Shown piece after piece: positions 34,215 through 43,662 of a stretch of DNA of 64,000 nt. The stretch is from Streptomyces sp. LUP47B (GTDB taxonomy: Bacteria; Actinomycetota; Actinomycetes; Streptomycetales; Streptomycetaceae). The first letter of the stretch is position 1, and the number at the start of each line of letters is the position of its first letter. The notes under the pieces were generated by a model that did no database searches, was not told the origin of the DNA, and saw only the letters and a list, made by a program, of their open reading frames with translations. The DNA lies in the NCBI RefSeq assembly GCF_001746295.1, contig NZ_MJAH01000006.1, forward strand, positions 656,187 through 720,186, written 5' to 3'. The position numbers and the translations under genes are program-made.

Positions 34215-36119
34215 GTGGCCGACCCGCACCGGCATCCGCGCACCGCATCGCCTCCATGGCGATACCAACGCCGGTCGAGCAAGCGGCTGTTCGGCGGCTT
34301 GACGGCCGCCACCGCGCTGGCCGTCTCCGCGCTCACCGGCCTGCCGCAGGCCGCGCACGCCGCGACCGCGCGGCAGGTGGAACGCCTCGACCGGGGACTG
34401 ACCAGCGTCCACACCGGCAGCGGGAACCTGGTGTCGTGGCGGTGGCTGGCCACTGACCCGAACGACGTGGCCTTCAACGTCTACCGCGGCGGCACCAGAC
34501 TCAACTCCTCGCCCCTGACCACCTCGACGAACTACCTGGACGCCGGCGCCGCGGACTCGGCCGACTACACGGTGCGCGCGGTGGTGAACGGCGTCGAGCA
34601 GGCGCCGTCCGAACACGCGCTCCAGTTCCGCACCGGGTACAAGGACGTGCCGATTTCCCCGCCGTCAGGGGGCACTTCACCGGGCAACTCGCCGTACACC
34701 TACGAGGCCAACGACGCCTCTGTCGGCGACCTCGACGGCGACGGTGCCATGGACATCGTTCTGAAGTGGCAGCCGACGAACGCCAAGGACAACTCCCAGT
34801 CCGGGTACACGGGCAACACGATCGTCGACGGCGTCAAGCTCGACGGCACTCGCCTGTGGCGGATCGACCTGGGCCGCAACATCCGTTCCGGCGCGCACTA
34901 CACGCAGTTCCAGGTTTACGACTACGACGGCGACGGCAAGGCCGAGGTCGCCATGAAGACCGCCGACGGAACGAAGGACGGAACCGGCGCGGTCATAGGC
35001 AGTTCCTCGGCCGACCACCGCAACTCCTCGGGCTACGTGCTGTCCGGCCCCGAGTACCTGACGATGTTCAACGGGCAGACGGGCAAGGCGATGCAGTCCG
35101 TCGACTACGTCCCAGCCCGGGGCACGGTGTCGTCCTGGGGGGACTCCTACGGCAACCGCGTGGACCGGTTCCTGGCGGGCACGGCCTACCTGGACGGTTC
35201 CCGACCTTCGCTGATCATGGCTCGTGGCTACTACACCCGCGCGGTGATCGCGGCCTGGGACTGGCGGAACGGGAAGTTCACCCGCCGGTGGACCTTCGAC
35301 TCCAACGCCAACAGCGGCTACGCCGGCCAGGGCAACCACCAGCTGTCGGTCGCGGACGTGGACGGGGACGGCAAGGACGAGGTCGTCTACGGCGCGATGG
35401 CCGTCGACGACAACGGCAACGGCCTGTGGACGACGCGGAACGGCCACGGGGACGCGATGCACGTGGGCGACCTCGACCCGTCCCGGCCGGGTCTGGAGGA
35501 GTTCAAGGTCGACGAGGACAGCTCCAAGCCGTCCTCCTGGATGGCGGACGCGAGGACCGGCCAGGTCCTCTGGTCCACCCCGGCCGGCGGCGACAACGGC
35601 CGGGGCGTGTCCGGTGACATCTGGTCCGGCAGCGCGGGCGCCGAGTCGTGGTCGTCGCTCGTCAGCGGCGTCCGCAACCCCAAGGGCGCGGTGGTCTCCA
35701 GTCGCAAGCCCGGGTCCACCAACTTCCTGGCGTGGTGGGACGGCGACACCACGCGCGAACTCCTCGACGGCACCCACATCGACAAGTACGGCACCTCCGG
35801 AGACACCCGCCTGCTCACCGGCTCCGGGGTCCACTCCAACAACGGCACCAAGTCGACGCCGTCCTTGTCCGGCGACATCCTCGGCGACTGGCGCGAGGAG
35901 GTCATCTGGCCGACGTCCAACAACACGGCCCTGCGGATCTACTCCACGCCGTACCAGACCAATACGCGGATCACGACCCTCCTCCACGACACTCAGTACC
36001 GCACGGCCCTGGCCTGGCAGAACACTGCCTACAACCAGCCCCCGCACCCCAGCTTCTTCATCGGCGGCAACATGCCCACGCCACCCCGCCCCACCGTCGC
36101 GCTGCCGAACAGCCTCTGA
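34215..36119 (+). CDS. secreted PL11 rhamnogalacturonan lyase
   Basis: This 634-aa exported lyase cuts the rhamnose-galacturonate backbone of RG-I by beta-elimination. The GTG start follows GGAGGT; a signal peptide ends near residue 49 (AAHAATA). The mature protein begins with the family's typical RQVERLDRGLTSV, then a beta-sandwich region. An eight-bladed propeller follows, with calcium loops DLDGDGAMD, DYDGDGKAE and DVDGDGKDE. It ends at about the usual length for YesW-type enzymes. It is transcribed away from the deacetylase and galactanase genes and is followed by a strong terminator. Confidence 0.9.
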   Translation: MADPHRHPRTASPPWRYQRRSSKRLFGGLTAATALAVSALTGLPQAAHAATARQVERLDRGLTSVHTGSGNLVSWRWLATDPNDVAFNVYRGGTRLNSSPLTTSTNYLDAGAADSADYTVRAVVNGVEQAPSEHALQFRTGYKDVPISPPSGGTSPGNSPYTYEANDASVGDLDGDGAMDIVLKWQPTNAKDNSQSGYTGNTIVDGVKLDGTRLWRIDLGRNIRSGAHYTQFQVYDYDGDGKAEVAMKTADGTKDGTGAVIGSSSADHRNSSGYVLSGPEYLTMFNGQTGKAMQSVDYVPARGTVSSWGDSYGNRVDRFLAGTAYLDGSRPSLIMARGYYTRAVIAAWDWRNGKFTRRWTFDSNANSGYAGQGNHQLSVADVDGDGKDEVVYGAMAVDDNGNGLWTTRNGHGDAMHVGDLDPSRPGLEEFKVDEDSSKPSSWMADARTGQVLWSTPAGGDNGRGVSGDIWSGSAGAESWSSLVSGVRNPKGAVVSSRKPGSTNFLAWWDGDTTRELLDGTHIDKYGTSGDTRLLTGSGVHSNNGTKSTPSLSGDILGDWREEVIWPTSNNTALRIYSTPYQTNTRITTLLHDTQYRTALAWQNTAYNQPPHPSFFIGGNMPTPPRPTVALPNSL

Positions 36120-36390: not shown

Positions 36391-36578
36391 GGGAGCCGAG
36401 CGTGGATGCGGCCGCGAGGCGGGTGCCCTGTCGCCAGACCGCGCGAATCGACAGGATGTCGTTGATGGTCGTGGTGGGATCACCGTCGACCAGGACGAGA
36501 TCTGCCCGCAGGCCTTGCTCGACGCGGCCCCGATTGTGGAGGCCGAACCGTCGTGCTGTCAGTGAAGTCGCCGAGCGC
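36391..36578 (-). repeat. 188-bp direct repeat, copy 1 (amidohydrolase 3' fragment)
   Basis: This segment matches 42459-42646 at 186 of 188 bases. In the minus frame it encodes the last ~60 residues of the amidohydrolase at 42448 (TARRFGLHNRGRVEQ, then ADLVLVDGDPTTTIND). Only the gene's end is present here. The repeat boundary at 36578 coincides with the start of another gene fragment. Confidence 0.9.
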
Positions 36579-37051
36579 GGACACCGGTCGTACGTATCTC
36601 GCACGGGGCAGGACAGATCAAACTGCTCACCGATGTGAGCACACTGGCACCAGGAGAGCGGAGGTCTCCCGGGATGCTGAGCCAGCAGCACCTGATGCAC
36701 GAGGGGCGACTGGTCCCGGCGGCGATCGTCTACGCCCATGACCGGGACCTGGAGGAACTCGGCCGGTCCTGTCCGGAGGCGCTCGCGGTGGCTCATGTGG
36801 CGGGTGATCCGTGCGTTGACCGGATCACGGCCGGCTGGCCCGGGCGGGAGTCCTACCGCCGTGCCCTGGGAATCGAGGACGGGCAGCGGCTCGTCGTCGT
36901 CACGTCCACCTGGGGACCGACTTCGACGTTCGGGCGGCTCGACTCCCTGCTGCCGCAGCTGCCGAGTCAGCTGCCCCGCGACCTCTACCGCGTCGCGATG
37001 CTGGTCCATCCCAACGTGTTCCCCCGGAAGCCGACTGGCAGGCGCCACTGA
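36579..37051 (+). pseudogene. internal fragment of a large hypothetical protein
   Basis: One frame is open from the repeat junction at 36579: TPVVRISHGAGQIKLLTDVS, then LMHEGRLVPAAIVYAHDRDL, VAGDPCVDRI and VVVTSTWGP, ending near VAMLVHPNVF. This looks like the middle of a larger Streptomyces protein resembling GT-B or CDP-glycerol glycerophosphotransferase-like folds; the family link is from memory and weak. It lacks both ends, being cut at the repeat on the left and at the LOG-AT gene on the right. Confidence 0.45.
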
Positions 37052-37066
37052 TCGCGGCTGACTGGA

Positions 37067-38608
37067 TCAGCGGGGCATGTCGGCCCCCGCGCGCAGAGCC
37101 TGCCAGTCCCGGTACATCGCCAGTGCCGTCAGGGGCCGGTCGGTGTCGGGGAGGCAGCCGCCGAGCATGCCGGTCAGCACGTCGCCCGGGCCCAGTTCGA
37201 GACAGGTCGTCACACCGTCCTTGTGTAGCCGGCCGACCGCGTCCGCGAACCGGACGGGTTCGCGCAGCTCTCGTACCCAGAACTCCGGTGTGATCGCCTC
37301 GGCCCCGACCGGCTCCGCCGTGATGTCGGAGATCAGCGTGGTGTGCGGTACCGCGAGGCGCAACGTCCTCAGCGTCCTGAGGACGTCGTCCAGGATCGGA
37401 TCGAGCTGCGGAGAGTGCGCGGCCACGCTCACGCGGAGCAGCCGACTCCGGTGGCCGCGAACCGTCCACGCCTCGTGCAGGGCCGTCACCGCGTCCCGGT
37501 CGCCCGAGACGACCACGGCTCTGGGGCCGTTGACCGCCGCGACCACCACCCCGGGTGTCGGTGGCAGCTCCTGTGGCGCGGCCTCCATCGCGGCCATCGC
37601 CCCCTGGCCCGCCAGCGCGTCCATCAGCCGGTACTGGACGCCTACCGCGCGACAGGCGTCCGCCAGGGAGAAGACACCGGTGACGTGCGCCGCGGCCATG
37701 CGCCCCGCCGAGTATCCGAACACCACGTTCGGTTCCAGCCCCCAGCTCTCCAGCAGCCGGTACTGCGCGACCTGGAGCGCGAAGATGGCCGGATTCCCGA
37801 ACGCGATCCGGTCGAGCAGCGCCGAGGTCCGGGTGCCCGCCTCGGCGAACATCACGTCCCGCAGCGGCAGATCGAGGTACGGGTCGAGGAGCGCGCAGAC
37901 TTCGTCGAGGGCGGCCGCGAACACCGGGAACTCCGCGTGGAGTTCGCGGCCCATGCCGGGCTGCTGGGATCCGGCGCCCGAGAACAGGAACGCCGTCCGG
38001 CCCTGTGGCAGCCGTATCGGAGCCGGAGCACCGGACCGCTCGGCGCGAGTGCCCGGGGATGTCCCGCCGGAGGTGCCCGCCAGCAGTTCCACCACTTCCC
38101 GTGCCGAAGTGCACACCGTGATCCGCTCCAGGTCCCCGGTCCTGAGGAAGCCCTCGTCCCGGGCATGTTCCAGGAAGGCCAGCAGCGGACGGTAGAAGCC
38201 GTCCGGGTCCAGCAGGACGCAGGGCTTGCGGTGGATGTGCAACTGGGCCCAGGAAACCGCTTCCAGCAGTTCCTCCGCCGTGCCCAGGCCGCCCGGCAGC
38301 GCCACGAAGGCGTCACCCAGCTCGGCCATCCGTGCCTTGCGCACGTGGATGTCCGCCACCACCTCCAGCTCAGTCAGCCCCGTGTGCGCGATCTCGTACG
38401 GCAGCATGCGGCGTGGCACGACTCCGGTCACGGTGCCCCCGGCGGCCAGGGCCGCGTCGGCGACCGCGCCCATGAGCCCCGAGCGGGCACCGCCGTAGAC
38501 CAGGCGCAGACCGGCCTCGGCCAGGGCATGCCCGAACTGGGCGGCCGTACGCAGATAGCCGGGGCGCGACCCGGGCGCGGACCCGCAGAAGACGGTTACT
38601 CCGGTCAC
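37067..38608 (-). CDS. LOG-type phosphoribohydrolase fused to a polyketide-type acyltransferase
   Basis: This 513-aa two-domain protein starts at GTG 38608, overlapping the upstream stop (GTGA). Residues 1-180 are a LOG/TIGR00730 Rossmann domain with GGARSGLMG at 39-47 and [24 protein letters not shown] at 90-113. LOG enzymes release free cytokinin bases from their ribotides. Residues 203-500 are an acyltransferase like PKS AT or Fab[13 protein letters not shown], nucleophile Ser300 in GYSAG (usually GHSxG), His398 in [10 protein letters not shown], and LELGPGDVL. No acyl carrier domain is present. I know of no described LOG-AT fusion. It may release and acylate an isopentenyl-adenine-like product, but this is inference. 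Confidence 0.78.
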
Positions 38609-39951
38609 GGCCACAGGTCGTACCCCCGAGTGAGGATCCGGTGCGGGTCGTACTGCGTCTTGGCCCGCGCGAAGCCCTCCCAGGCCGGCCCGAAGTGGGC
38701 CTGCCAGTCCCGCGGAGTCATCTGCACGGCGCTGACCGCGTGGAGGGTCCCGCCCAGCTCCCGTGCCCGCTCGTACAGCTCCCGGTTGGCGGCGAGCGCC
38801 TGCCGCACCGCGTCCGCGTCGGCGGGCGGTGCCGTGCGCATCAGGGAGACCAGGCACAAGTCTTCCCCCGCCGGTTTGCGCAGCATGGGAGCGCGCAGTC
38901 GACCGGAGTCGAGGGGGCGCAGCTGGACCGTTCCGCACGTGCGCAGTCCCTGCTGGCCGCTGTCGGCCAGGATCGTCGGGACGAAGGAGACGGCTGCCGC
39001 CTCCGGGACCAGGAGCGTCAGCCACGGATGCGGGCGTTCCCATTCGCCGGTGACACGCAGGATGCGCTCGTCGCGGTCCATGCGGTGGAGGAACTCCGCG
39101 TAGGAAAGGTCCTCGATCTCCTCGACGTCACGGTCGTGACGGAGACCGTCGGTCAGCGCGGCGTCGTCCGGGGGAAGCCGACCGGTGTGCGGGGTGACGG
39201 CTTCGATCACGTAGTCCCAGGCTCCGGCGAGTGCGGGCCGCGCCTGGCCGGAGACATGGGTGAAGTGGTCGTGGTGAGCGAGGCGGCGCTGATCGGCGAA
39301 GTACGGCCCGGGGAGCGTGTAGTGGAGGCGGTAGCGGCGTACGAGAGCAGGTGCGGGCACCAGGCGGAGGGTGGCCCGGACGATCAGCGCGCACTGGCCG
39401 AGGCCGGCCAGGACCGTGTCGAACAGGTCGGGCCGGTGTCGGCGCGAGCAGGTCACCTGTTCGCCGGTGCCGGTGACGACCTCCACTTCACTCACCGCGT
39501 CGGCGACGAGGCCGTACCGGTGGCTGGACGCACCGAAGCCACCGGTGCTCAGCGTTCCGCCGACACTGGCACCGAGATGGTCGGGGAGCACCGGCGGCGC
39601 GAGACCCTCGGCGAGGGCGGCCCGTACGACGTCGCGCCATGTCGCGCCCGCCTCGGCGACCAGGGTCCGCTCGTCCGCCGTGCGGTGCACCGCGTTCAAC
39701 GCGCGCATGTCGATGAGGTGTCCGCCCTCGGCCTGTCCCTGGCCGTACATCGAGTACCCGCAGCCCCGCGCGGAGACCGGTACACCCTGCGGGCCGGCGA
39801 CGGCAACGATGTCGCGGAGCTCGTCGCCGGTGCGGGGCGCGCGGACATCCAGGGGGCGGGATGCCACGATGTGGCCGAAATCGGGCGTGGGGCAGGTGAC
39901 ATCGCCGAGAGCCGTGCCCGGTGGGGGCACCCGCTTGGAGGCCAGCCTCAT
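38605..39951 (-). CDS. cytokinin dehydrogenase-like FAD oxidoreductase
   Basis: This 448-aa flavoprotein starts at ATG 39951, overlapping the isopentenyltransferase stop (ATGA). It follows the plan of cytokinin oxidases: FAD-binding PCMH domain at about 30-210 with [44 protein letters not shown] and [16 protein letters not shown] substrate domain follows, ending [14 protein letters not shown]. In plant and fas-type enzymes FAD is bound to the His of a GHS motif; here the site reads GCGYS (63-67), with Tyr66 at that position. The flavin may thus be held differently, or the reaction changed. The neighbouring IPT and LOG genes support a cytokinin-type substrate. Confidence 0.75.
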
Positions 39952-40727
39952 ACGGCGACCTGCATCATGTCGAGGTCCGGCCCGGGTTCGCGGATGAGGG
40001 TCTCGAAGATCTCGGAGAACACCCGGTGCTGCAGACGACCGTGCTCCGCGTGGCGTACGGCGATCAACTCGGCCATCCGCGTCAGCAGTTGTTCGGGAAG
40101 CTGCCGCTTGGCCAGGGACTCCACATCGAGTGAGTACTTGGCGCAGCATTCGAGGACTGCTTCGAAACCGTTCACGGAGGCCACGAACAGCCGTTGCCGG
40201 GGATCGTGCCAGAGCGTGGCCAGTTCGTCGATCAGGGTCCTGTCCGGGGGTGACGCGGTGAGCATGACGCGTGCTCGACGGGTGAGCGTGGCGAGGTAGT
40301 GGTCGTGATCGGGCAGCGGCAGCAGACGTATGCTCAGGCGCCAGGGCAGCTCGGCCGAGCGGGCGGACAGCTCCCGCAGCAGCGAGATGGATCCGCCCTC
40401 GACGATCACGAAACGGTGCCGATGCTGTGTGGCCTGCTGCTGGACCAGCGTGATCAGCGCGTCCGCCGCCTCGTTCGCGCAGAGGTCGCCGTCCGCGACG
40501 GTGCGGTCGCCGAGCCAGTACCGACGCACGCTCGGCACGTCGGCCCCCGCCCGGGCGCTTGTGGTGGCCATGTCCACGAAGCACTGCAGCCGGTCGGCGA
40601 CGACGATCGGCGCGCCGGTGAGCTGGGCCATGGCGGTGGCGGCCGCACTCTTGCCGACGCCGGTCGGCCCTGCGATCACATGGACGACAGGATGTGTCTC
40701 AGAAGTGGATTTCCTGGTATCGGACAT
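39948..40727 (-). CDS. adenylate isopentenyltransferase (IPT, fasD/Tzs type)
   Basis: This 259-aa P-loop enzyme would transfer a dimethylallyl group to AMP, the first step of cytokinin synthesis. ATG 40727 follows AGGAATTCTC; the frame extends upstream into the promoter region. The N-terminus has IAGPTGVGKS (18-27) and the conserved D45-R-L-Q in VVADRLQCF, as in bacterial IPT. FVIVEGGSISLL follows mid-protein. Its length matches Agrobacterium Tzs and Rhodococcus FasD rather than the longer MiaA tRNA enzyme. It is first of three genes joined by 4-bp overlaps. DMAPP versus HMBDP use cannot be told. Confidence 0.75.
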   Translation of the reverse strand: MSDTRKSTSETHPVVHVIAGPTGVGKSAAATAMAQLTGAPIVVADRLQCFVDMATTSARAGADVPSVRRYWLGDRTVADGDLCANEAADALITLVQQQATQHRHRFVIVEGGSISLLRELSARSAELPWRLSIRLLPLPDHDHYLATLTRRARVMLTASPPDRTLIDELATLWHDPRQRLFVASVNGFEAVLECCAKYSLDVESLAKRQLPEQLLTRMAELIAVRHAEHGRLQHRVFSEIFETLIREPGPDLDMMQVAV

Positions 40728-40979: not shown

Positions 40980-41390
40980 CTAGGGGCTCCCGTGTGCCGG
41001 CTCGGATTCCATGCCGGGCTCGACGGCGGGTGGCTTCTCGTAGTGGTCGGCGTACCGGGCGGCGAGGCAGTCGATGGCGTTGAGTAGAGCCCGGCCGTCC
41101 GGTGTGAGCTGGTAGTCCACCTGCGGCGGCGCGGTCGGGCGGACGATACGGATGACCAGACCGTCCTGTTCGAGGCTGCGGAGGGTGGCGGTCAGCATGC
41201 GGCCGCTGATGCCGTCCACGTTCCGCCGCAGCTCGGCGAAACGTGCTCCGTCCGGGTCGATGAACGACAGGACGGGCAGTGACCACTTATCTCCCATTTT
41301 GCGGAACAGTGCATGAAGTATTGCGCGCTGCTGTCGCTCGACTCGCCGGGTTTTCGGCTCGTGGTGGTTACCTTCTTGTTCCCTGGTCAC
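40980..41390 (-). CDS. HxlR-family winged-helix regulator
   Basis: This 136-aa protein shows the HxlR pattern: MGDKWSLPVLSFID, FAELRRNVDGISGRMLTATLRSLEQDGLV and YQLTPDGRALLNAI. Its N-terminus is extended with charged residues. No conserved N-terminal cysteine typical of redox-sensing HxlR members is visible, so a ligand or unknown signal is more likely. It lies upstream of the IPT gene on the same strand, 252 bp away, and is divergent from the transketolase-like gene. It probably regulates one or both. Confidence 0.8.
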   Translation of the reverse strand: MTREQEGNHHEPKTRRVERQQRAILHALFRKMGDKWSLPVLSFIDPDGARFAELRRNVDGISGRMLTATLRSLEQDGLVIRIVRPTAPPQVDYQLTPDGRALLNAIDCLAARYADHYEKPPAVEPGMESEPAHGSP

Positions 41391-41634
41391 ATTGATGTCC
41401 GTCCTTGCGGCCGCGGGAGTGGCGGGATATTTTGGTGAGCGGTATTGATTCGCTTCCGGCGGTCACTCTGGTTGCAGATTTCTACACCATTGAGCTCCGG
41501 TCGGGAAAGCTGTGGAAAAATTAACGCGAGTTCCTTCCCGCGTCTTGTGGGAATTTCATGGAACTCATGGATTCCCGCATGCCCCGACAGATCTTGGTCT
41601 GCCGACGGTGCCTGCCCCCCAGGAGGAACGTCCC

Positions 41635-42222
41635 GTGCCCACCGACATGCTGATCGCCGCGGCGGAAGCCCTTGCCACGCCCCTTCCCCAAACCTCCTCC
41701 GGCACGGTCCTCGTCGGCTACGGGACCGAGGAGGAACTGATCCGGTACGCCATGGCCCCGGATTGGGCCGTGCATGTCCCCGGCCACCCCGACGAAGTGC
41801 GTCAGGTGGTCGCGGACGCCATGGCACGCGAGGACCGCGCCTACGTCCACGTGTCCGCGCGGGCCAACTCCGCAGCCCACGCACTGACCGGCGGGTTCGA
41901 ACTGGTGCGGGAAGGACTCGACGGCGTGGTGATCGCCGTCGGCCCCACGCTCGACCCGGTGCTGCGCGCCACGGTCGGCATGGACCTTGCCGTCCTCTAT
42001 GCGGCGACCATCCGCCCCTTCGACGAGGTCGGGCTGCGCACTGCCGTACTGGCCGCCCACCATGCCGACGTCGTGCTGGTCGAACCCTGCCTGCCGGGCG
42101 CCTCGGCCTTATACGTGGCTCAGACGCTGGTGCACGTGCCGCACAGGCTGCTCGCCCTGGGCGGCGCGGAGAGCACGGGCGAGGAGGAAATCGCCCGTGC
42201 CGTACGGGACTTCGTCAGGTGA
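41635..42222 (+). CDS. half-size transketolase-like protein
   Basis: This 195-aa protein has a GTG start at 41635 with AGGAGGA upstream. It matches only the C-terminal part of transketolase or pyruvate dehydrogenase E1-beta chains: VHVPGHPDEVRQVVADAM, then AVLYAATIRPFDEVGLR and ADVVLVEPCLPG, the last being the C-terminal Rossmann-like domain. The pyrimidine-binding domain with the catalytic Glu is absent, so it cannot be a TPP enzyme alone. The good ribosome-binding site argues it is expressed. Fas-type cytokinin operons carry transketolase-like subunits (fasB/fasC), so it may be a leftover or a repurposed subunit; that link is inference. Confidence 0.55.
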   Translation: MPTDMLIAAAEALATPLPQTSSGTVLVGYGTEEELIRYAMAPDWAVHVPGHPDEVRQVVADAMAREDRAYVHVSARANSAAHALTGGFELVREGLDGVVIAVGPTLDPVLRATVGMDLAVLYAATIRPFDEVGLRTAVLAAHHADVVLVEPCLPGASALYVAQTLVHVPHRLLALGGAESTGEEEIARAVRDFVR

Positions 42223-42447: not shown

Positions 42448-43662
42448 TCACAGGCTGAGGGAGCCGAGCGTGGATGCGGCCGCGAGGCGGGTGCCCTGTC
42501 GCCAGACCGCGCGAATCGACAGGCTGTCGTTGATGGTCGTGGTGGGATCACCGTCGACCAGGACGAGATCTGCCCGCAGGCCTTGCTCGACGCGGCCCCG
42601 ATCGTGGAGGCCGAACCGTCGTGCTGTCAGTGAAGTCGCCGAGCGCAGGGCTTCGGTGGGGCTGAAACCGGCCTGTACGAGCAGTTGCAGCTCGCCGTGC
42701 AGACTTGCTCCGTGGGTCACGCCGCGCACGGCCAGAGCCGCGGCGTCGGTGCCTGCGATCACGTCGACCCCAGCCTGGCGCAGGGCGGCGATCGTGGCCA
42801 GTGCCATGTCGAAGTGCGAGGCGGGCAAGCCGCCGAACGTGTCGGAGAGGTGCGCCCGCAATTCCGGCGCAAGCTTTCCCGCAACGCGGGGATCTTGCGC
42901 CAGGTCCGTGCTGTGCGACAGCCCGACGATGGAGGCAAGGGGAGTCAGTGTCGGCACCACGACCACGTTCGCGCTTGCGATGCGGTCGACGATCTCCGGG
43001 GTGTGGGCCGTGTCGGCGAACAGATGGGCGAGGCCGTCGGCGCCGGCGTCGACCATCTGTTCGGTCTCGTGCAGCGTCATGGCGTGGGCCATCACCATCT
43101 TCCCGCGAGCGTGCGCCTCGGCGATCACGGCGGCGTGAATCTCCAGTGGTACGTGCGGCAACTGGAAGCCGAACGCCTCGCCGCTCTCGGCTATCAGCTT
43201 GATGTAGTCGGCGCCCTCGCTGATCCGATCCTCGACGAACCCGGCCGCCTGCGCCACGGTGGTCGCGGTCGGCCAGACCGGATCGTTGAGGCCCTTCCGG
43301 AACTGATGAGGGTGGCCGTCGAGGTGGGTGAGCGAAAAGGAGGCGCTCCGCACGTCCGCGAAAGTCCGGTCGGCCTCGACCTCGGCGCGCAGCGGAATCA
43401 TGGTGGCGGGGACCGAGCCCATGTCGAGTTCGGTGGTGACGCCGAAGGTCAGCGCCTGGCGCAGCATCGCGGCGTCTGTGTGGGTGTGTGCGTCGATCAG
43501 GCCCGGCAGCAGGGTTGCGCCGGTGGCGTCGACGACTTCCACCCCGGTGACACGCGGCCCGCCCACCGAGACGATGACGCCGTCGGCGACGTGCACGTCG
43601 ACCTGGCCCAGGTTCTTCTCGCCGTCGAACACCTTCGCACCGACGATGACGAACTCGTTCAC
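42448..43662 (-). CDS. metal-dependent amidohydrolase
   Basis: This 404-aa enzyme belongs to the amidohydrolase superfamily. The GTG start follows AGGAGAG. The metal ligands HTHTD (in LIDAHTHTD), a bridging-lysine region (DYIKLIAES), His in MVMAHAM, His in LAHLF and the catalytic Asp in VIAGTDAA are all present, and the C-terminus returns to the small beta-sandwich (GLRADLVLVDGDP). Substrates in this group include cyclic amides, imides and dipeptides; none can be assigned here. The last ~60 codons are duplicated 6 kb away at 36391, so this is the intact parent copy. Confidence 0.82.
   Translation of the reverse strand: MNEFVIVGAKVFDGEKNLGQVDVHVADGVIVSVGGPRVTGVEVVDATGATLLPGLIDAHTHTDAAMLRQALTFGVTTELDMGSVPATMIPLRAEVEADRTFADVRSASFSLTHLDGHPHQFRKGLNDPVWPTATTVAQAAGFVEDRISEGADYIKLIAESGEAFGFQLPHVPLEIHAAVIAEAHARGKMVMAHAMTLHETEQMVDAGADGLAHLFADTAHTPEIVDRIASANVVVVPTLTPLASIVGLSHSTDLAQDPRVAGKLAPELRAHLSDTFGGLPASHFDMALATIAALRQAGVDVIAGTDAAALAVRGVTHGASLHGELQLLVQAGFSPTEALRSATSLTARRFGLHDRGRVEQGLRADLVLVDGDPTTTINDSLSIRAVWRQGTRLAAASTLGSLSL
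42459..42646 (-). repeat. 188-bp direct repeat, copy 2 (inside amidohydrolase gene)
   Basis: This is the in-gene copy of the segment also found at 36391-36578, differing at two bases. The two copies have the same orientation and bracket the IPT-CKX-LOG/AT operon, HxlR and transketolase-like genes. Confidence 0.9.

What the first reader, a model, noticed from the sequence alone, without database searches (positions are those of the whole stretch)
37067..40727. Three-gene cytokinin-like operon ending in a LOG-acyltransferase fusion
An isopentenyltransferase, a cytokinin-oxidase-like flavoprotein and a LOG-type domain fused to a PKS-like acyltransferase are joined by 4-bp overlaps. IPT, CKX and LOG are core activities of the Rhodococcus fas locus (fasD, fasE, fasF), but an acyltransferase in one chain with LOG is not part of that pathway as I know it. 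Both halves keep catalytic residues: PGGLGT/E for LOG, and Ser300 and His398 for AT. A pathway that frees a prenylated adenine and then acylates it, or loads it on a carrier, would be new.
Basis: partly seen in the sequence, partly recalled or inferred. Interest (0 to 1): 0.85.

Follow-up and report, generated by a model that had tools for sequence, protein, structure and literature searches.

The report
Cytokinin-locus enzyme fused to acyltransferase
A small Streptomyces gene set descended from the bacterial plant-hormone (cytokinin) genes carries an enzyme joined to a reshaped polyketide acyltransferase, and its other parts are reshaped too, which suggests that it makes or processes something other than an ordinary cytokinin.

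Summary
Confirmed: three minus-strand genes with 4-bp overlaps, IPT (40727-39948), a CKX-like flavoprotein (39951-38605) and one uninterrupted LOG-acyltransferase frame (38608-37067). The fusion is real: 18 named Streptomyces genomes and two unnamed ones also hold an intact fused frame; in a sample of 396 genomes of the phylum only the window's own matched. The locus descends from the fas type: a divergent gene is a remnant of the TPP-enzyme gene fasC, and S. cylindrosporus keeps a pre-fusion form (fasB/fasC-like, IPT, CKX with GHS, LOG, no AT). In the fusion clade the AT most simply joined once and was later lost several times; it lost the malonyl-binding Arg and the GHS His, Gln and Phe but kept Ser300/His398; the CKX-like protein lost flavin-linking signatures (GHS in every readable row; TD(Y/F)L to (P/S)DHL in every row). 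So 'CKX activity' is unsafe, and the AT is not a malonyl loader. Best reading: a remodelled fas pathway in which LOG frees prenyladenine and the AT handles a non-malonyl acyl group, with export by an ABC transporter that in this genome sits elsewhere. No reaction, acceptor or product is shown. No description was found in the held papers. New variant of a known kind.

The parts
39948..40727 (-). IPT (adenylate isopentenyltransferase, FasD-like), 259 aa
   Evidence: PF01745 4.9e-54; Tzs 2ze5 1.6e-24; 44% to S. turgidiscabies fas IPT
38605..39951 (-). CKX-like flavoprotein (FasE-derived), 448 aa; GHS replaced by GYS, TDYL by PDHL
37067..38608 (-). LOG-acyltransferase fusion, 513 aa, GTG start
38078..38608 (-). 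LOG half, residues 1-177 (R90, [10 protein letters not shown]113)
38003..38077 (-). linker, residues 178-202; variable, low model confidence
37154..38002 (-). AT half, residues 203-485; Ser300 codon 37711-37709, His398 codon 37417-37415; Gln325 in place of Arg
40980..41390 (-). HxlR-type regulator between IPT and the fasC remnant; no similar gene found in the 14 compared loci
   Evidence: PF01638 2.7e-20 for 40980-41297
41635..42222 (+). fasC remnant: transketolase-type subunit that has lost most of its pyrimidine-binding region, divergent from IPT (the frame could also start at 41512)
   Evidence: no Pfam hit itself; the full-length relative in L052 is Transket_pyr 1.6e-29
36391..36578 (.). 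188-bp direct repeat, left copy (like the 3' part of the amidohydrolase gene)
42459..42646 (.). 188-bp direct repeat, right copy (99%), inside amidohydrolase 42448-43662

Best explanation
A fas-descended locus whose pathway has been remodelled. IPT joins a prenyl group from DMAPP to AMP (inferred), the LOG half removes ribose-phosphate to free the prenyladenine (inferred from intact motifs), and the AT half, a captured PKS acyltransferase that no longer has the residue for a carboxylated acyl group, forms an acyl-Ser300 intermediate with a non-carboxylated acyl group from CoA or a carrier in trans and passes it to a small acceptor, most likely the product set free next to it by LOG or that product after action of the altered CKX-like flavoprotein; an ABC transporter, coded beside the fusion in most relatives, sends the product out. 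Shown: the genes, the fusion, the residue changes, one AT clade, dN/dS below 1, kinship with fas. Inferred: the single fusion event and every reaction. Unknown: acyl group, acceptor, product.
For: Fusion conserved: 24 of 30 loci with the CKX-like protein at 60% identity or more have AT sequence, 18 of them an intact fused frame. AT half of 19 intact fusions is one clade against 12 PKS ATs (support 100). In 19 of 19: Ser300, His398, Asn360 and LOG R90, E113 kept; Arg325 is Leu/Gln/Met, Glu303 is His/Arg/Met, His299 is Tyr. Arg binds the malonyl carboxylate in FabD and its absence marks non-malonyl acyl hydrolases (PMC11775670 passages). Pairwise dN/dS mean 0.38 for AT and 0.25 for LOG, 171 non-independent pairs. 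AT gain goes with the CKX motif change and fasC truncation. ABC transporter in 28 of 30 loci, and in 22 of the 24 with AT.
Against: No acyl donor, carrier or acceptor is identified; no carrier-protein domain and no P450 lies in the window. The Gln of the oxyanion loop and the GHS His are gone as well, which could mean lost activity. The AT half was lost or broken repeatedly: 6 of 30 loci lack it and 6 of the 24 that have it are broken, shortened or remnants, some perhaps by draft errors. In the window genome the transporter is not adjacent. The LOG half stays below NCBIfam's cut-off for a cytokinin-specific LOG (130.7 against 300 bits), so its substrate is not certain either.
Confidence: 0.42

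Rival explanations
1. The AT half is an acyl hydrolase of the PksD kind: it strips acyl groups from a carrier or from an acylated nucleobase or prenyl adduct rather than adding them.
For: Arg replaced (Gln in the window, as in PksD Gln124) and GHS His replaced, both marks of acyl hydrolases in PMC11775670 (passages); model superposes on PksD 8avz at Z 36.5, rmsd 2.6, 306 aligned.
Against: Acyl hydrolases keep the oxyanion Gln (or His) and the Phe before the catalytic His; the fusion ATs lost both in 19 of 19. They serve trans-AT PKSs, and no carrier-protein domain lies in the window. The best sequence matches are modular PKS ATs.
Confidence: 0.2
2. The AT half is no longer catalytic and serves as a structural or partner-binding domain in a pathway that still makes plain isopentenyladenine.
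For: Several active-site residues are gone; AT half has the higher dN/dS in 168 of 171 pairs; loss of the half without loss of LOG in L074, L079, L081.
Against: Ser, His and Asn kept in 19 of 19 although only 28% of AT columns are invariant; dN/dS well below 1; 43 of 68 columns invariant in 12 PKS ATs are kept in all 8 fusions compared.
Confidence: 0.22
3. An ordinary fas-type cytokinin locus that is degenerating; fusion and motif changes are drift.
For: Patchy distribution and many broken copies; fasC truncated and fasB missing.
Against: Changes are the same across the clade (Tyr299 in 19 of 19; DHL motif in 31 of 31 rows), not scattered, and dN/dS of the fusion gene is below 1; the block survives intact at another site in the window genome.
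Confidence: 0.13
4. The AT loads an acyl group, or a prenyladenine-linked one, on an acyl carrier protein in trans.
For: AT domains normally serve carriers (family knowledge); carrier-domain matches exist elsewhere in the genome (28 matches).
Against: None of those 28 lies in the window, and none of the conserved genes of the locus (fasC remnant, IPT, CKX-like, LOG-AT, ABC) is a carrier by Pfam.
Confidence: 0.03

Closest known systems
fas operon (Rhodococcus fascians; Streptomyces turgidiscabies)
   Same: IPT and CKX-type flavoprotein in that order with a transketolase-type subunit upstream, and a LOG; S. cylindrosporus links the two states
   Different: LOG fused to AT; CKX-like protein without the flavin-linking motifs; fasC truncated and divergent, no fasB-like gene or P450 in the window; ABC transporter beside it in relatives. 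S. turgidiscabies Car8 holds both loci at separate places
IPT-LOG fusions (R. fascians A21d2; Claviceps purpurea)
   Same: A LOG domain in one chain with another enzyme (passages of PMC4092121 and PMC8234997)
   Different: Partner there is IPT, here an acyltransferase at the C-terminus
Modular PKS AT domains (GfsA KSQ-AT 9iyw/7vee, salinomycin AT)
   Same: Fold and 44-51% identity in the four best structure rows; Z 40.4, rmsd 2.0, 304 aligned to 9iyw
   Different: No KS or carrier; malonyl Arg, GHS His, Glu, Gln and Phe replaced
trans-AT PKS acyl hydrolases (PksD)
   Same: Arg and GHS His replaced; Ser-His kept
   Different: Gln/His and Phe kept in acyl hydrolases, lost here; not fused to LOG

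Membership tests
fas-type cytokinin locus | adenylate IPT of the FasD/Tzs kind | tested here: met
   PF01745 4.9e-54, far above the next group of hits in the genus (best 1.3e-7, taken as miaA)
fas-type cytokinin locus | LOG phosphoribohydrolase with catalytic Arg and PGGxGTxxE | tested here: met
   motif in 19 of 19 intact fusions; TIGR00730 6e-53; but below the cut-off of the cytokinin-specific model NF058542
fas-type cytokinin locus | TPP-enzyme pair FasB/FasC | tested here: not met
   only a truncated FasC remnant; no FasB-like match in the window
fas-type cytokinin locus | P450 FasA | tested here: not met
   39 P450 matches in the genome, none in the window
active cytokinin dehydrogenase (CKX) | GHS motif with His bound to FAD | tested here: not met
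   GYS in the window; a His (as GHA) in 4 of 29 readable fusion-clade rows, GHS in none
active cytokinin dehydrogenase (CKX) | catalytic Asp | tested here: met
   D124 aligned to the maize enzyme's Asp (that this is the catalytic one is recalled), invariant in 11 sequences
active cytokinin dehydrogenase (CKX) | Tyr next to the catalytic Asp, said to be needed for self-flavinylation | tested here: not met
   His in 31 of 31 fusion-clade rows; Tyr in 5 basal and 3 outgroup rows; but Phe in the S. turgidiscabies fas enzyme, so the rule is not strict
malonyl-CoA acyltransferase domain | Ser-His dyad | tested here: met
   19 of 19
malonyl-CoA acyltransferase domain | Arg that binds the malonyl carboxylate | tested here: not met
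   Leu 16, Gln 2, Met 1 of 19; Arg in 12 of 12 PKS ATs
trans-AT acyl hydrolase | Arg replaced, oxyanion Gln/His and Phe before His kept | tested here: not met
   Arg replaced, but Gln and Phe also replaced in 19 of 19
any of the above | LOG, AT or CKX activity | not testable with these tools
   needs purified protein

The most novel reading that the evidence does not exclude
A cytokinin-type pathway in which the base freed by LOG is acylated on the same polypeptide by a repurposed PKS acyltransferase, working with a flavoprotein that has left cytokinin degradation: a new class of acylated or acyl-derived prenyladenine natural product, exported by its own ABC transporter and present in several plant-pathogenic and soil Streptomyces.
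Probability: 0.33. Interest if true: 0.82.

Novelty: new variant of a known kind. Interest (0 to 1): 0.6.

Why it matters
It is a case where a plant-hormone gene set was rebuilt: one PKS domain was captured and re-tuned, the degrading enzyme of the set lost its signature motifs, and the TPP pair was dropped or truncated. If a product exists it would be a new signal or metabolite from Streptomyces that include scab and soil-rot species, and it would bear on the open question of why fas loci carry a CKX at all.

Tried and rejected
Assembly artefact or frameshift at the junction: rejected, since 18 named genomes and two unnamed ones (G128, G115; not the same genomes as any named locus, best 93.7% and 89.4%) hold the fused frame. 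AT as normal malonyl transferase: rejected on residues. Fusion on plasmids: 17 plasmid records matched, none over 80% of the query; 8 of the 17 were listed, and these matched the AT part. Fusion elsewhere in the phylum: 1 of 396 genomes at E 1e-95, the window's own; some of the 396 belong to the genus, and only 3 candidates per genome were scored. Orthologous site in the window genome: transporter and neighbours are there, and no remnant of the block was found by tblastn or blastn. LOG half in the structure comparison: the list was filled by AT matches, so LOG was not tested there. Literature: seven full-text searches for cytokinin loci or a fusion listed nothing on a LOG-acyltransferase fusion; lists were cut (20 of 22; 12 of 19; 12 of 90), and most subscription papers are not held. 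Prenyl-donor preference of the IPT was looked at (passage) and left open. The PKS AT panel was partly read on the wrong strand and was redone; only one search is used for it. The 12 PKS ATs are the best-matching ones, not a random set. CKX and AT trees place the window differently in detail (beside L079, beside L061/L063/L067); not tested further.
Full report
Observation. The three minus-strand frames, their 4-bp overlaps and the single 513-aa LOG-AT frame are as described. Pfam and NCBIfam assign an IPT, a cytokinin-dehydrogenase-type flavoprotein, and LOG plus PKS-type AT. No NCBIfam model specific for cytokinin enzymes reaches its cut-off: the cytokinin LOG model NF058542 scores 130.7 against 300 bits. 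The best solved structures by sequence are Tzs for IPT, plant CKX for the flavoprotein, and modular PKS ATs and LOGs for the fusion.

Distribution. In 392 genomes of the genus, 15 IPT genes of the adenylate kind (E below 1e-48; the next hits start at 1.3e-7 and are taken as miaA) occur in 13 genomes. Regions around them show a fusion in 9 genomes: the window, G022, G128, G276, G272, G244, G356, G115 and, broken, G121. LOG without AT is seen in G001, G014, G338 (two loci, one with stops inside LOG) and one locus of G144; a second IPT locus of G144 has neither CKX nor LOG in the 14 kb read. A scan of 84,980 species genomes with the CKX-like alignment found 95 relatives and kept 80. Of these 80, 30 have the CKX-like protein at 60% or more (L060-L087, L090, L124); AT sequence is present in 24, ABC transporter in 28, IPT in 25, fasC remnant in 26 (tally). 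One of the two without the transporter, L062, lies on a contig that ends inside the AT. Intact fused frames of over 470 aa: 18 of the 24. The other six are L060 (frame break), L062 (early stop), L069 and L073 (internal deletions), L087 (frame breaks) and L124 (remnant). Named holders include S. turgidiscabies and S. caniscabiei with intact frames, S. europaeiscabiei and S. ipomoeae with broken ones, and many soil species. This scan starts from CKX, so loci without it cannot appear. In a sample of 396 genomes of the phylum only the window's own matched at E 1e-95.

Descent from fas. In S. cylindrosporus (L052, the same stretch as L088) the locus is TKN and full-length TKC, divergent from IPT, CKX and LOG, without AT; Pfam calls the first two Transketolase_N and Transket_pyr. 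The fas operon of S. turgidiscabies (L143) has TKN and TKC at 63 and 60% to the S. cylindrosporus proteins and IPT and CKX at 44% each to the window's, then an IS110-type transposase and no LOG match. That genome holds two adenylate-type IPT genes at separate places, so the fusion locus is not its fas operon. In the window and the fusion clade the TKC gene lacks most of the pyrimidine-binding region, and no TKN-like gene is in the window. The functions of FasB and FasC are given as unknown in PMC4092121 (passages).

One fusion, several losses. In a tree of 39 CKX-like rows (38 different) the AT-less loci L065, L068, L071, L074, L079 and L081 (and L048, the same genome as L079) lie inside the clade that holds all fusions, while L088, L089, L091-L093 lie outside it (quick search, 9 of 35 inner branches under 80). 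The tree needs 6 changes of the AT state. The AT halves of 19 intact fusions form one clade with support 100 against 12 PKS ATs. Simplest reading: fused once, lost or broken repeatedly.

AT half. Against 12 PKS ATs from relatives, the 8 fusions compared changed Gln212, His299, Glu303, Arg325 and Phe397 among others. Over 19 intact fusions: Ser300, His398, Asn360, Ser399 are invariant; His299 is Tyr in 19; Glu303 is His 11, Arg 7, Met 1; Arg325 is Leu 16, Gln 2, Met 1; Phe397 is Pro 12, Ala 5, Thr 1, Gly 1; Gln212 is Ala 12, Gly 4, Ser 1, Thr 1, Val 1. PMC11775670 (passages) states that the Arg binds the malonyl carboxylate, that its absence marks acyl hydrolases, that the residue before Ser is not crucial in these, and that the Gln (or His) and the Phe stay conserved there. 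So the fusion AT shares two marks of acyl hydrolases but has a different, probably wider pocket (inference). Nei-Gojobori dN/dS, mean of 171 non-independent pairs: AT 0.38, LOG 0.25; AT higher in 168. 28% of AT columns and 46% of LOG columns are invariant, so invariance of Ser and His alone is modest evidence. An AlphaFold model from 8 sequences (mean pLDDT 79.9; linker 179-194 and two LOG stretches, 109-112 and 123-126, below 50) superposes on GfsA KSQ-AT 9iyw, Z 40.4, rmsd 2.0, 304 aligned, and on PksD 8avz, Z 36.5, rmsd 2.6, 306 aligned.

CKX-like protein. PMC8234997 (passages) says that all active CKX bind FAD to the His of GHS, that self-flavinylation needs a Tyr next to the catalytic Asp, and that Nostoc CKX with GYT holds no FAD and is inactive, though a Chroococcidiopsis enzyme is active with FAD apparently not covalently bound. 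The S. turgidiscabies fas enzyme and the five basal rows keep GHS; the basal rows have TDYL and the fas enzyme TDFL. All 31 fusion-clade rows (30 distinct) have (P/S)DHL; of 29 readable at the first motif only L072, L078, L082 and L083 keep the His, as GHA (L086 and L087 not readable). Three outgroup rows keep the His and TDYL. The Asp stays. Hence 'CKX' describes descent, not shown activity.

The window's copy moved. The transporter that stands beside the fusion in relatives is at G000:C23 at 91%, with the usual neighbours, and the TKC-IPT-CKX-LOG-AT block was not found there. In the window the block, with an HxlR regulator, lies between two 188-bp direct repeats, 99% alike, one being the 3' part of an amidohydrolase gene. 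It was transposed or acquired as a cassette (inference).

Mechanism. IPT and LOG should give isopentenyladenine. The AT, held next to LOG, should form an acyl-enzyme with a non-carboxylated acyl group. Transfer to a small acceptor made by the locus is my first choice (0.42); loss of catalysis (0.22) and hydrolysis (0.2) follow. No carrier-protein domain or P450 is in the window.

Novelty. Seven paper searches (three lists cut) showed no LOG-AT fusion; IPT-LOG fusions are known. PMC8369830 (passages) gives the fas operon as found notably in S. turgidiscabies among scab species. Filed as a new variant of the fas kind, not as a fas operon, because the FasB/FasC pair, FasA and the CKX flavin motifs were tested and not met.

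Noticed in passing
window 36391-36578 and 42459-42646: 188-bp direct repeats (99%) flank the whole block; one is the 3' end of an amidohydrolase gene (42448-43662). A partial copy at 74% lies on contig 7 of the genome.
   Followed up: partly
L144 8939-10627 (G000:C23): The ABC transporter normally beside the fusion remains at the ancestral site of the window genome, and the biosynthetic block was not found there.
   Followed up: yes
L065, L071: Two loci keep only the CKX-like gene and the ABC transporter, which hints at a role of these two without IPT and LOG.
   Followed up: no
L094-L108, L110-L123, L125-L139: CKX-like proteins of about 38-45% identity in Actinomadura, Nocardia and others, with no IPT or LOG match in the stretches read; function unknown.
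   Followed up: no
L143 5725-7035: In S. turgidiscabies Car8 an IS110-type transposase follows the fas CKX gene where LOG (fasF) would be expected; no LOG match was found in that stretch.
   Followed up: partly
L052, L058, L071: S. cylindrosporus carries three CKX-type loci: two of the pre-fusion kind with fasB/fasC-like genes (one with stops inside LOG) and one reduced to CKX and transporter.
   Followed up: no
window 36674-37051: Short plus-strand frame of 125 aa between repeat and LOG-AT, no Pfam hit; perhaps a gene fragment.
   Followed up: no
window 34299-36119: Rhamnogalacturonan lyase (RGL11 family) near the block, a plant cell wall enzyme by family knowledge.
   Followed up: no
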